A stretch of 64,000 nucleotides of DNA from Stappia sp. MMSF_3263 (GTDB taxonomy: Bacteria > Pseudomonadota > Alphaproteobacteria > Rhizobiales > Stappiaceae), in assembly GCF_030733745.1 (NCBI RefSeq), contig NZ_JASHIK010000009.1, positions 62,001 through 126,000 on the forward strand, written 5' to 3'. Shown one piece after another: positions 39,695 to 47,376 of this stretch. A program made the position numbers and the translations under genes. The notes under the pieces were generated by a model. The model ran no database searches. It saw only the letters and a list, made by a program, of their open reading frames with translations, and was not told the DNA's origin. Within the stretch, counting starts at the first letter, position 1. Every line of letters starts with the position of its first letter.

Positions 39695-41481
39695 ACCGGC
39701 GCGCGCTCGAGGCGATGCGCCCGCTTTGCCTGGCGCAGACCTTCGCCCAGTTGCATCCGGCGGAGGGCGATGTCGGCATCGTCATCTGCGAGCCCTGGGG
39801 TTACGAGGCGCTCTGTGCCCGCCGCTCCCTGCGCATCCTCGCCGACCGGCTGGCGGGTCTCGGCTATCCGGTGCTGCGCTACGACCAGCCCGGCTCCGGG
39901 GACGCGGCCGCGGAGGCCGCCGATATCGACGGCCTGGAACCGTTCCAGGCGACCCTTGCCGAGGCCTGTGACACCCTGCGCCGGGTAACGGGCGTGCGTG
40001 CGGTCGTGCTTGTCGGGCTTGGCCTGGGGGCGGCCTTGGCGGCACGCCATGCCGAGATTCATCCCGGGGGAACGTCCGGCCTTGTACTGCTCGCGCCGGT
40101 CGTGAAGGGCCGCACCTGGCTGCGCGAGGTGCAGGCGCGCGCCATGATGATCGGCGAACTGACCGGCAGTGCGCCCGAGCCGCGCGCCGGCGAGGCGCTG
40201 GCGATCGCCGGCCTGCCGATGAGCGAGGGGCTTGCCGGCGAGATTCGCGGCCTCGACATCTCCGCAACGGCGCTTGCAGGCGATCTTCCGGTGCTGGTGC
40301 TGGCCCGGGACGGGCGCCCGGCCGAACTCGCCCTTGCCGCCTCGCTCTGCGCGGACGCGGAAAGCGGGCAGGGCGTCATGGCGGGGTATGACGAGATGAT
40401 GGGCGACCCGACCGGCGCCGTGCCGCCGCTTGCCGATTTCGGCCGGGTCGAAGCCTGGCTGCAGCATGCGCGTCCCTGCCGGCCCGGGAATGACGCCGGC
40501 GCCGCGGCGCCCGCCTTGCCGCCGGCGGTTCTTGGCATCGATGGCGTCACCGAGGAGGCGCTGGTTTTCGGCGCGCAGGAAAATCTCTACGGCATCTGGT
40601 GCGCGCCGCGCGCGGACGCTGTGCCTGGAATGCGTCCTGTTATCCTGCTCAATGCCGGCGGCGTTCCACATGCGGGCTGGGCGCGGGGCACGGTGGAGCT
40701 CGCCCGGGGCCTGGCGCGATCCGGCATTGCCTCGCTGCGTTTCGACGTGGCCGATATCGGCGACAGCCGGCCCGGGCCCGGCGCTCCGCCGGTGGTTCAT
40801 TATCACCCGGACCAGAACGGGGAACTCGCCGCGGCGCTCGACCTGGCGCTTGCCCGCGTGCCGGCGGACGGCGCGGTTGTCACCGGGGCCTGCGGCGGCG
40901 CCTACCTGGCGCTCAATGGCGCGGTCGCGGATCCGCGCGTCGCCCATGTGGTCGCGGTCAACCTGCAGCGCTTCCTCTGGGATCCGCGCGACGACGTGGC
41001 GGAGGTGCTGCGCTTCGGTCACGCCTCGGCGCGCGACTACGGCCGCAAGATGCTGAGCGTGGAAAAGTGGAAGCGGGTGCTTTCGGGCAAGACCAGCGCC
41101 TTCGGCATCCTGCGCAGCCTGGCCAACCGGGCCTACCGAACCGGCGAACGGCGTCTTGCGCCCTGGCTCTTCGGCCTGCTGCCCTTCTCACGGCTGTACA
41201 ACACCGTCCACGCCAACCTGGCGGCCCTGGCCCGCCGCGATGTCACGGTCGATCTGGTTTTCAGCGAGGGCGATCCGGGGCTCGCGCAGATGGATCTCTT
41301 CTTCGGCGCCGGCTGGTCGCGGCTCGATGCCTTTGCAAACATGCGGGTCACGATGCTCGCCGATGCCGATCACAACCTGACGCCGCGCGCCGCGCGCCGG
41401 ATCGTCGCCGACCATGTCACGGTCGCGGCTGCTGCCTTGCGCGCGTCCGAGGAACGGTCGGGTGATCAGGCGGCGGAATAG
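39691..41481 (+). CDS. Tandem alpha/beta-hydrolase protein of the polysaccharide cluster
   Basis: A 596-residue protein of two alpha/beta-hydrolase units (about 15-265 and 310-590). In unit 1 the nucleophile elbow reads G109-L-G-L-G113, so the catalytic Ser is Gly and the unit is probably inactive. In unit 2 it reads G399-A-C401-G-G403, a Cys in place of Ser, with a later DADHNLTP supplying the His. Similar double hydrolases occur near exopolysaccharide and exosortase loci; substrate and reaction are unknown. The ATG at 39691 overlaps the GH5 stop. Its end converges with the GH2 gene, overlapping 16 bases. Confidence 0.75.
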   Translation: MNRRALEAMRPLCLAQTFAQLHPAEGDVGIVICEPWGYEALCARRSLRILADRLAGLGYPVLRYDQPGSGDAAAEAADIDGLEPFQATLAEACDTLRRVTGVRAVVLVGLGLGAALAARHAEIHPGGTSGLVLLAPVVKGRTWLREVQARAMMIGELTGSAPEPRAGEALAIAGLPMSEGLAGEIRGLDISATALAGDLPVLVLARDGRPAELALAASLCADAESGQGVMAGYDEMMGDPTGAVPPLADFGRVEAWLQHARPCRPGNDAGAAAPALPPAVLGIDGVTEEALVFGAQENLYGIWCAPRADAVPGMRPVILLNAGGVPHAGWARGTVELARGLARSGIASLRFDVADIGDSRPGPGAPPVVHYHPDQNGELAAALDLALARVPADGAVVTGACGGAYLALNGAVADPRVAHVVAVNLQRFLWDPRDDVAEVLRFGHASARDYGRKMLSVEKWKRVLSGKTSAFGILRSLANRAYRTGERRLAPWLFGLLPFSRLYNTVHANLAALARRDVTVDLVFSEGDPGLAQMDLFFGAGWSRLDAFANMRVTMLADADHNLTPRAARRIVADHVTVAAAALRASEERSGDQAAE

Positions 41482-47119: not shown

Positions 47120-47376
47120 CAGGCGGCCTGGTGGTCTGCGACCAGACCGGACACGGCGGCGGAAATCGCCGCGATGCTGGCGAAGGTCTTGCGGTTGAGC
47201 AGGTTCTCGGGGAACTCGACGTCGAACTTCTCCTCCAGCGCCAGCATCAGCTGGACCGAGGCGAAGGATGACAGCCCGGCGGCATAAAGATCGGCCTCGT
47301 CGGCCAGGGTGCCGACGTCGACCGGCAGCTTGCCGTGGCTGGCGACGATATTGCGGACTTCGTCGGTGATCGACAT
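47119..47376 (-). CDS. Acyl carrier protein-like phosphopantetheine carrier
   Basis: An 85-residue carrier protein. The attachment region reads DLYAAGLSSFASVQLMLALE (about residues 29-48); Ser37 takes the place of the Ser in the usual D-S-L motif, which here is S-S-F. The sequence is acidic and four-helix in pattern, typical of ACP/PCP folds. The partner ligase would load a small amino acid onto its arm. No phosphopantetheinyl transferase gene is in the window. The ATG at 47376 follows AGGAGAGCGAAC; an upstream extension of the frame has no support. It is the first gene of a five-gene minus-strand operon. Confidence 0.88.
   Translation of the reverse strand: MSITDEVRNIVASHGKLPVDVGTLADEADLYAAGLSSFASVQLMLALEEKFDVEFPENLLNRKTFASIAAISAAVSGLVADHQAA

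What the first reader, a model, noticed from the sequence alone, without database searches (positions are those of the whole stretch)
41466..47376. Five-gene carrier-protein aminoacylation operon ending in a family 2 glycosidase
Carrier protein, acyl-CoA dehydrogenase-like enzyme, amino acid:carrier-protein ligase, DUF1839 and GH2 genes follow each other with gaps of -1, 14, 6 and 24 bases. Known: ligases of the Bll0957 type load Gly or Ala on such carriers, with no agreed product. Inference: the amino acid is activated, oxidised on the carrier by the flavoprotein, transferred by DUF1839 to an acceptor, and a sugar is handled by the glycosidase. The GH2 partner suggests a glycosylated acceptor or a link to the neighbouring polysaccharide. 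This is a strong candidate for an undescribed pathway.
Basis: partly seen in the sequence, partly recalled or inferred. Interest (0 to 1): 0.75.

Follow-up and report, generated by a model that had tools for sequence, protein, structure and literature searches.

The report
Aminoacyl-carrier cassette tied to surface polysaccharide
A widespread bacterial gene set probably loads an amino acid onto a carrier protein, oxidises it and passes it to a sugar-containing surface molecule; the set was already noticed in 2010, but a sixth partner gene and a link to biofilm polysaccharide loci make its unknown product testable.

Summary
The operon is real: carrier, acyl-CoA-dehydrogenase-fold flavoprotein, amino acid:carrier ligase, DUF1839 and GH2, minus strand, gaps -1, 14, 6, 24. 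It is not undescribed: a 2010 note (PMC2922099) reported this neighbourhood and proposed transfer of the amino acid to a sugar amine. GH2 belongs: 80 of 80 DUF1839 loci hold all five genes in order; 16 of 16 DUF1839 genomes (of 398) have this GH2, no others. A sixth member was missed: the convergent two-domain alpha/beta hydrolase (39691-41481) occurs in those 16 genomes plus one, and in 37 of 37 searched genomes lacking it at the cassette. The DUF1839 model matches carrier-dependent condensing enzymes (CcbD, CtaG) and AziU2-U3. The flavoprotein matches monooxygenases (nitrososynthases, DszC) about as well as dehydrogenases. In Burkholderia cenocepacia the cassette apparently lies between two c-di-GMP regulators of Bep exopolysaccharide, whose published structure has no amino sugar but followed NaOH extraction. 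Most likely: activation, oxidation on the carrier, transfer by DUF1839 and/or the hydrolase to an exopolysaccharide-related acceptor. Acceptor, product and GH2's role remain unknown.

The parts
47119..47376 (-). Carrier protein (85 aa), phosphopantetheine serine S37 in a GLSS motif
   Evidence: NF005480 113.2 bits, PP-binding; S37 in 81 of 81 aligned sequences
45932..47119 (-). Acyl-CoA-dehydrogenase-fold flavoprotein (395 aa)
   Evidence: PF02771/PF00441 over cut-off; model pLDDT 80; first four solved matches TdsC, nitrososynthase, DszC, KijD3, closely followed by dehydrogenases
45006..45917 (-). Class II aaRS-like amino acid:carrier-protein ligase (303 aa)
   Evidence: NF005479 508.6 bits; nearest solved structures are Bll0957 entries 4h2w (E 1.6e-98) and 3mey (E 9.6e-96)
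44001..44999 (-). DUF1839, papain-fold, predicted carrier-dependent acyltransferase/amide synthase (332 aa)
   Evidence: PF08893 427.9 bits; all 18 PDB matches at E<=0.001 are AziU2-U3, CtaG or CcbD chains; C30 88 of 89, H125 and H146 89 of 89
41466..43976 (-). GH2 beta-mannosidase-like glycosidase (836 aa), no Sec-like N-terminus seen
   Evidence: PF22666, PF17753; PDB beta-mannosidases E about 3e-35; both catalytic Glu (E428, E509) in 89 of 89
39691..41481 (+). Sixth member: two-domain alpha/beta hydrolase (relatives of TIGR03101 + TIGR03100); 3' end overlaps GH2 by 16 bases. Start taken at the first ATG; searched as window:39682-41481
   Evidence: Same 16 of 398 genomes as DUF1839 plus G322; present in 37 of 37 searched genomes that lack it at the cassette; last gene of the run in L179 and L180; C-domain Cys-Asp-His in 51 of 51
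38639..39694 (+). Context: GH5 (cellulase-family) glycosidase, overlapping the hydrolase gene
   Evidence: PF00150 165.1 bits
37264..38652 (+). Context: polysaccharide flippase-like membrane protein, overlapping the GH5 gene
   Evidence: PF01943 30.0 bits, cut-off 28.2
36041..37267 (+). Context: glycosyltransferase overlapping the flippase gene
   Evidence: PF00534 74.1 bits
28975..35575 (.). Context: WecG/TagA glycosyltransferase (28975-29715, -), Wzz/GNVR chain-length protein (29926-32115, +), membrane protein without Pfam match taken as Wzy-like (32096-33397, +), glycosyltransferase (33384-34568, -), polysaccharide deacetylase (34565-35575, -)
   Evidence: the Wzy-like name rests on reading the translation and place only

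Best explanation
The system is a six-gene module, not five. (1) The aaRS-like ligase activates a small amino acid, probably Gly or Ala, and loads it on the phosphopantetheine arm of the carrier (shown by others for relatives, inferred here). (2) The ACAD-fold flavoprotein oxidises the aminoacyl group on the carrier; its features fit N-oxygenation of the KijD3/DnmZ/DszC type about as well as dehydrogenation (inferred). (3) DUF1839 takes the group onto Cys30 and transfers it to an acceptor nucleophile, as CcbD transfers CP-bound proline to an amino sugar (inferred from predicted fold and conservation). (4) The Cys-Asp-His alpha/beta hydrolase, usually encoded among polysaccharide genes, handles the same acyl group or product during assembly of a surface polysaccharide or a related glycoconjugate (inferred). 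(5) GH2 acts in the cytoplasm on a beta-glycosidic bond of the acceptor or of an intermediate (inferred, weakest step).
For: Five genes in order in 80 of 80 loci. In one sample of 398 phylum genomes: DUF1839 in 16, cassette-type GH2 (at least 714 bits, next best 154) in the same 16, hydrolase in these 16 plus G322, ligase over cut-off in these 16 plus 12 others. Presence and absence of DUF1839 and hydrolase go together within two genera: g5 2 with and at least 3 without, g9 1 with and at least 7 without. Of the 80 named loci, 41 have the hydrolase locally; of the other 39, 37 genomes were searched and 37 have it elsewhere; 2 short contigs (L042, L076) were not searched. One six-gene run in L179 and L180. 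DUF1839 fold: all 18 hits at E<=0.001 are AziU2-U3, CtaG or CcbD chains; CcbD is CP-dependent, uses Cys-His-Glu and an amino sugar acceptor (PMC12945683, passages). In the 3 two-copy cases examined the cassette DUF1839 lost the Cys while the second copy, near the hydrolase, kept it. G322 pairs the same carrier family and hydrolase with an adenylation-domain ligase near a Wzc-like kinase. Window: hydrolase gene overlaps GH5, flippase and glycosyltransferase genes in one run. B. cenocepacia: cassette between Crp-like genes and a VpsR/sigma-54 regulator, followed by ManC, glycosyltransferases, Wzc, GH5, flippase and the hydrolase.
Against: The Bep repeating unit in PMC7084887 is Gal-Glc-Gal-Man without amino sugar or amino acid (abstract and sections 5, 8), so an amide on a Bep amino sugar is not supported; NaOH would remove esters, not amides. 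In L179 and L180 no polysaccharide assembly genes are annotated next to the operon (that gene table is incomplete). 31 of 80 loci have neither the hydrolase nor a relative of eight window polysaccharide genes within about 10 kb. The window's Wzy-like gene is not a fixed partner: 6 of 16 DUF1839 genomes, 2 of them weakly, and 0 of 27 others. DUF1839 has no sequence-level match to CcbD and its model rests on 22 related sequences (best model mean pLDDT 81, the other four 61-74). The hydrolase has no close solved relative. The role of GH2 is a guess.
Confidence: 0.5

Rival explanations
1. The module makes a free-standing small molecule, an N-aminoacyl (amino)glycoside in the manner of lincosamides, that is not attached to exopolysaccharide; neighbouring polysaccharide genes are a frequent but incidental site.
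For: The DUF1839 model's hits at E<=0.001 are natural-product enzymes (the pathways of CtaG and AziU2-U3 by recall); six-gene runs in L179 and L180 without polysaccharide assembly genes annotated beside them; Bep has no amino sugar; DUF1839-free relatives of the ligase have unrelated partners such as AMP-binding/SDR or Cys_Met_Meta_PP/HTS.
Against: The hydrolase is co-inherited with the cassette; in the 12 regions fetched (of 37 genomes where it is not at the cassette) 10 have relatives of window polysaccharide genes near it and the other two a flippase next to it; its best curated relatives are named exosortase A system-associated.
Confidence: 0.25
2. The amino acid ends as a base-labile ester on polysaccharide hydroxyls, placed by the Cys-type hydrolase, as D-alanine on teichoic acid; DUF1839 and GH2 act on an intermediate.
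For: Cys-Asp-His in 51 of 51 hydrolase C-domains; G322 has carrier, a ligase related to DltA and the hydrolase but no DUF1839; the Bep structure was obtained after 0.3 M NaOH, which would strip esters.
Against: CcbD forms an amide; no membrane acyltransferase of the DltB type was looked for; direct evidence is lacking.
Confidence: 0.2
3. GH2 is a catabolic gene that merely shares the transcript, and the flavoprotein is an ordinary acyl-CoA dehydrogenase.
For: GH2 and ACAD families are mostly catabolic (established knowledge); dehydrogenases score close to monooxygenases for the flavoprotein, and the best sequence hit is a dehydrogenase (7p98).
Against: GH2 of this type (at least 714 bits) occurs in 16 of 16 DUF1839 genomes and none of the other 382; the QFG stretch of acyl-CoA dehydrogenases is replaced in the flavoprotein alignments; the flavoprotein stays next to the ligase in the 12 sampled loci that have no DUF1839.
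Confidence: 0.05

Closest known systems
SerRS-paralogue neighbourhood with Atu2574 (Iyer et al. 2010, PMC2922099, note added in proofs)
   Same: Carrier, redox enzyme, ligase, conserved uncharacterised protein, glycosidase, polysaccharide genes; same proposed logic
   Different: That note did not, in the passages read, name the hydrolase as a fixed partner or a fold for this protein; that Atu2574 is DUF1839 is my inference
Amino acid:carrier-protein ligase Bll0957 (PDB 3mey, 4h2w)
   Same: Ligase aligns over 294 residues at E 1.6e-98
   Different: Sampled loci that look like Bradyrhizobium (kinship inferred) lack DUF1839, this GH2 and the hydrolase
CcbD/LmbD lincosamide condensing enzymes; CtaG; AziU2-U3
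   Same: Predicted fold; a Cys nucleophile and a carrier-protein substrate for CcbD
   Different: No sequence-level match; triad described as C-T/S-H for DUF1839 (PMC10318531) against Cys-His-Glu for CcbD; acceptor unknown
Exosortase A-associated hydrolases TIGR03100/TIGR03101
   Same: Both models match, in one chain
   Different: Scores 96.2 and 63.2 are below the cut-offs 168.45 and 202.75; fused here; no exosortase was looked for
Nitrososynthases KijD3, DnmZ, ORF36 and DszC/TdsC
   Same: First four structural matches of the flavoprotein model are of this group
   Different: 17-21% identity; substrate here is predicted to be carrier-bound

Membership tests
Amino acid:carrier-protein ligase (NF005479) | Score over curated cut-off | tested here: met
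   508.6 versus 357 bits
Amino acid:carrier-protein ligase (NF005479) | Loads Gly/Ala on the cognate carrier | not testable with these tools
   Reported for relatives; no assay here
Carrier protein PRK07081 (NF005480) | Score over cut-off and phosphopantetheine Ser | tested here: met
   113.2 versus 72 bits; S37 81 of 81
Acyl-CoA dehydrogenase | Family score | tested here: met
   PF02771 and PF00441 over cut-off
Acyl-CoA dehydrogenase | QFG FAD-binding stretch and catalytic Glu (motifs by recall) | tested here: inconclusive
   QFG stretch replaced in alignments; the Glu positions could be read only from distant alignments that partly end before them
Nitrososynthase/DszC-type monooxygenase | Fold and conserved His | tested here: inconclusive
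   First four structural matches, but dehydrogenases follow at similar E; H91 is invariant and aligns with a His of KijD3 but not in the profile alignment
Nitrososynthase/DszC-type monooxygenase | Flavin reductase partner | not tested
   None among the cassette genes; genome not searched for one
CcbD-type condensing enzyme | Fold | tested here: met
   CcbD chains at E 1.6e-4 to 1.1e-3, TM 0.53-0.56
CcbD-type condensing enzyme | Sequence homology | tested here: not met
   Profile search of PDB sequences finds only 5hu4 at E 0.11
CcbD-type condensing enzyme | Amine-bearing sugar as acceptor | not testable with these tools
   No assay
GH2 beta-mannosidase | Acid/base and nucleophile Glu | tested here: met
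   E428 and E509 in 89 of 89, aligned with Glu of the solved beta-mannosidase 2vjx (their catalytic role by recall)
GH2 beta-mannosidase | Mannoside specificity | not testable with these tools
   No assay
Exosortase A hydrolase 1/2 (TIGR03100/TIGR03101) | Score over curated cut-off | tested here: not met
   96.2/168.45 and 63.2/202.75 bits
SerRS-paralogue cassette of PMC2922099 | Gene content as described there | tested here: met

The most novel reading that the evidence does not exclude
Alpha- and betaproteobacteria share a polysaccharide modification, c-di-GMP-linked at least in Burkholderia, in which an oxidised (for example N-hydroxylated) amino acid is built on a stand-alone carrier and attached, probably through a base-labile bond, by a papain-fold transferase and a Cys-type hydrolase; published structures miss it because the polymer is extracted in alkali.
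Probability: 0.25. Interest if true: 0.85.

Novelty: new member of a known kind. Interest (0 to 1): 0.58.

Why it matters
[quoted passage not shown] Fixing the partner set at six genes, giving DUF1839 a precise mechanistic analogue, and placing the cassette beside c-di-GMP regulators of a studied biofilm polysaccharide turn that question into specific assays. It also warns that alkali-extracted polysaccharides may have lost aminoacyl groups.

Tried and rejected
EF-P/EpmA/EpmB beside the cassette (EpmA- and EpmB-like clusters each in 52 of 113 loci): not among the window's genes near the cassette nor in the Burkholderia-type gene lists; taken as chromosomal context of Rhizobiaceae-type loci. 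Window Wzy-like gene as a co-inherited partner: rejected, 6 of 16 DUF1839 genomes, 0 of 27 others. VpsR/BerB-type regulator as a general partner: 5 of 5 f66 genomes, but 3 of 12 others with weak matches, one over cut-off, so it is lineage-specific. Rfam: no match in the window. Promoter scan upstream of the carrier: two sigma-70-like matches, both on the plus strand, none on the minus strand. Haft 2006 (PMC1569441) for carrier/ligase/hydrolase terms: no occurrences. The structural search for the flavoprotein does not separate monooxygenases from dehydrogenases decisively. Novelty searches: (DUF1839: one paper). Three Bep papers were searched for locus tags between berB and berA: none found (PMC3584217 and PMC9684580, Bcam1343-1348; PMC5552954, only Bcam1343 and Bcam1348).

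Rows dropped: of 95 cassette-type loci with long sequence (80 named, 15 unnamed) my gene caller missed DUF1839 in 7, GH2 in 7, the flavoprotein in 9 and the carrier in 15 (GH2, flavoprotein and carrier are not expected in L132); these are absent from the conservation counts, although tblastn finds all five genes in the 80 named loci.

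Full report
What is there. The ligase's nearest solved relatives are Bll0957 entries. The window genome has one DUF1839. The nearest named relatives are Stappia species with the same gene order on both sides, so the source is probably a Stappia relative (inference).

Is it a unit? All 80 hold the five genes in the same order and strand by tblastn. They are mostly Rhizobiaceae and relatives, so they are not independent. 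A second test used one sample of 398 genomes of the phylum: DUF1839 in 16, GH2 of this type in the same 16 at 714 bits or more while the next best GH2 scores 154, and ligase over cut-off in those 16 plus 12. The 12 without DUF1839 keep the flavoprotein next to the ligase but have other neighbours: a 291-residue protein without Pfam match, with PNP_UDP_1 and IF-2B genes beyond the carrier; Abhydrolase_3, a second carrier, an AMP-binding enzyme and an SDR; or Cys_Met_Meta_PP and HTS. I annotated some genes in 5 of these 12 loci (L144, L148, L151, L153, L154); the rest were matched by clustering only, and L150 shows none of these sets. So carrier, ligase and flavoprotein form a core with several outputs; DUF1839 plus GH2 is one output.

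A sixth member. In the same 398 genomes it occurs in 17: the same 16 and G322 (Fisher p about 1e-27 without correction for kinship). Presence and absence go together inside two genera. Of the 80 loci 41 hold it nearby; of the other 39, 37 genomes were searched and all 37 have it elsewhere. In Azospirillum sp. B510 and Mycetohabitans rhizoxinica it is the sixth gene of the run, starting four bases inside the end of GH2. Its C-terminal domain keeps Cys404, Asp531 and His564 in 51 of 51 sequences, while the N-terminal nucleophile position is Ser in only 8 of 51 (numbering as searched, three residues before the first ATG). I fetched 12 of the 37 regions where it lies apart from the cassette: 10 have relatives of window polysaccharide genes, and the other two, L199 and L203, have a polysaccharide flippase next to it. 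G322 has no DUF1839, but its hydrolase overlaps a carrier of the same family, over cut-off, after an amino acid adenylation enzyme, with a Wzc-like kinase nearby.

DUF1839. PMC10318531 (passages) classes it as papain-like with a Cys-(Thr/Ser)-His triad and guesses that it processes glycans in an acyl-CoA-dependent manner. My model (mean pLDDT 81, pTM 0.81) retrieves from the PDB, at E<=0.001, 18 chains that are all AziU2-U3, CtaG or CcbD. PMC12945683 (passages) states that CcbD takes carrier-bound proline onto its Cys and passes it to the amine of an amino sugar, and accepts many acyl groups. The functions of CtaG and AziU2-U3 are recalled, not read. In 89 aligned sequences C30 is kept in 88 and H125 and H146 in 89. 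The exception, L131, is instructive: in the three two-copy cases I examined (G255, G328, Cupriavidus metallidurans CH34) the cassette copy lost the Cys and the second copy, near the hydrolase, kept it. That fits an enzyme with a pseudo-enzyme partner. L133 and L178 were not part of the 89, and other two-copy records listed were not examined.

Flavoprotein. It lacks the QFG stretch in alignments with dehydrogenases. Its model (mean pLDDT 80) ranks TdsC, a nitrososynthase, DszC and KijD3 first, with dehydrogenases close behind; by sequence the best hit is a dehydrogenase, 7p98, then KijD3 close by. Invariant H91 aligns with a His of KijD3 in one alignment but not in the other. PMC2922099 also proposed monooxygenation. 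I lean to N-oxygenation at about 55 to 45.

GH2. Both catalytic Glu are kept in 89 of 89 and no sequence shows a Sec-like N-terminus by a crude hydropathy test, so an active cytoplasmic enzyme is likely. No substrate follows from this.

Polysaccharide link, for and against. In the window the hydrolase ends a run of overlapping glycosyltransferase, flippase and GH5 genes, with Wzz, deacetylase and further glycosyltransferase genes upstream. 49 of 80 loci have the hydrolase or a relative of eight window polysaccharide genes within about 10 kb; 31 do not. In f66 (Burkholderia-type) genomes ManC, WcaJ, Wzc and export genes are near. In B. cenocepacia L177 the order is WcaJ, a Crp-like gene (12866-13693), a second Crp-like gene (14570-15352), cassette, VpsR/sigma-54 gene, ManC, glycosyltransferases, Wzc, GH5, flippase, and the hydrolase 0.5 kb beyond the locus. 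This matches the order of berA BCAM1349, berB BCAM1342 and the bep cluster BCAM1330-1341 tabulated in PMC9684580 (passages). Six tags, BCAM1343-1348, lie between berB and berA; the five cassette genes plus the nearer Crp-like gene would fill them if berA is the further one. These assignments are my inference, since the record has no annotation. Against: the Bep repeat is neutral hexose without amino sugar (PMC7084887, abstract and two sections). Extraction in 0.3 M NaOH would have removed esters but not an amide. So the 2010 picture of an amide on a polysaccharide amino sugar does not fit Bep; an ester, a different glycoconjugate or a free small molecule remain. In Azospirillum and Mycetohabitans no polysaccharide assembly genes are annotated beside the operon (incomplete gene table).

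Known or new. The neighbourhood and its core hypothesis were printed in 2010 (PMC2922099, passages). In PMC9437257 (passages) the role of the loaded carrier is still called unknown. What I did not see in print, within searches of an open-licence library, is the sixth gene as a fixed partner, the CcbD-type fold match, the split into active and inactive DUF1839 copies, and the position beside the bep regulators. The founding biochemical papers (Mocibob 2010, 2013) were not held and not read. The window itself is one more instance of a common cassette.

Noticed in passing
window 49074-52522: Methyltransferase, glycosyltransferase, 6-pyruvoyl-tetrahydropterin-synthase-like gene and a zinc-dehydrogenase-like gene form a run conserved in L032-L037 and in G262 (L138): possibly a modified pterin.
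   Followed up: no
window 47629-47654: 26-base imperfect palindrome (13-base arms, 85%) between the carrier gene and the divergent pcaF-like thiolase, overlapping a sigma-70-like match on the plus strand; looks like a repressor operator of the thiolase.
   Followed up: no
L131, L133, L178: Cassette copies of DUF1839 without the active-site Cys where a second intact copy exists.
   Followed up: partly
L144-L149: Ligase loci that look like Bradyrhizobium: a conserved 291-residue protein (no Pfam match in L144 and L148) beside the ligase, and a carrier gene on the other strand next to PNP_UDP_1 and IF-2B genes (methylthioadenosine salvage by recall).
   Followed up: no
L153-L155: Ligase and flavoprotein near Cys_Met_Meta_PP and homoserine O-succinyltransferase-like genes (annotated in L154, clustered in the others), suggesting a sulphur-containing product.
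   Followed up: no
L168 8014-11809: Adenylation-domain enzyme, PRK07081-type carrier and the two-domain hydrolase as a minimal three-gene variant in a polysaccharide cluster.
   Followed up: partly
L156-L160: Distant ligase relatives of about 400-440 residues, below the family cut-off; none of the other cassette clusters was seen in these 5 loci.
   Followed up: no
window 17630-28983: Run of genes that read like cobalamin biosynthesis (from the translations, names by recall, not scanned).
   Followed up: no
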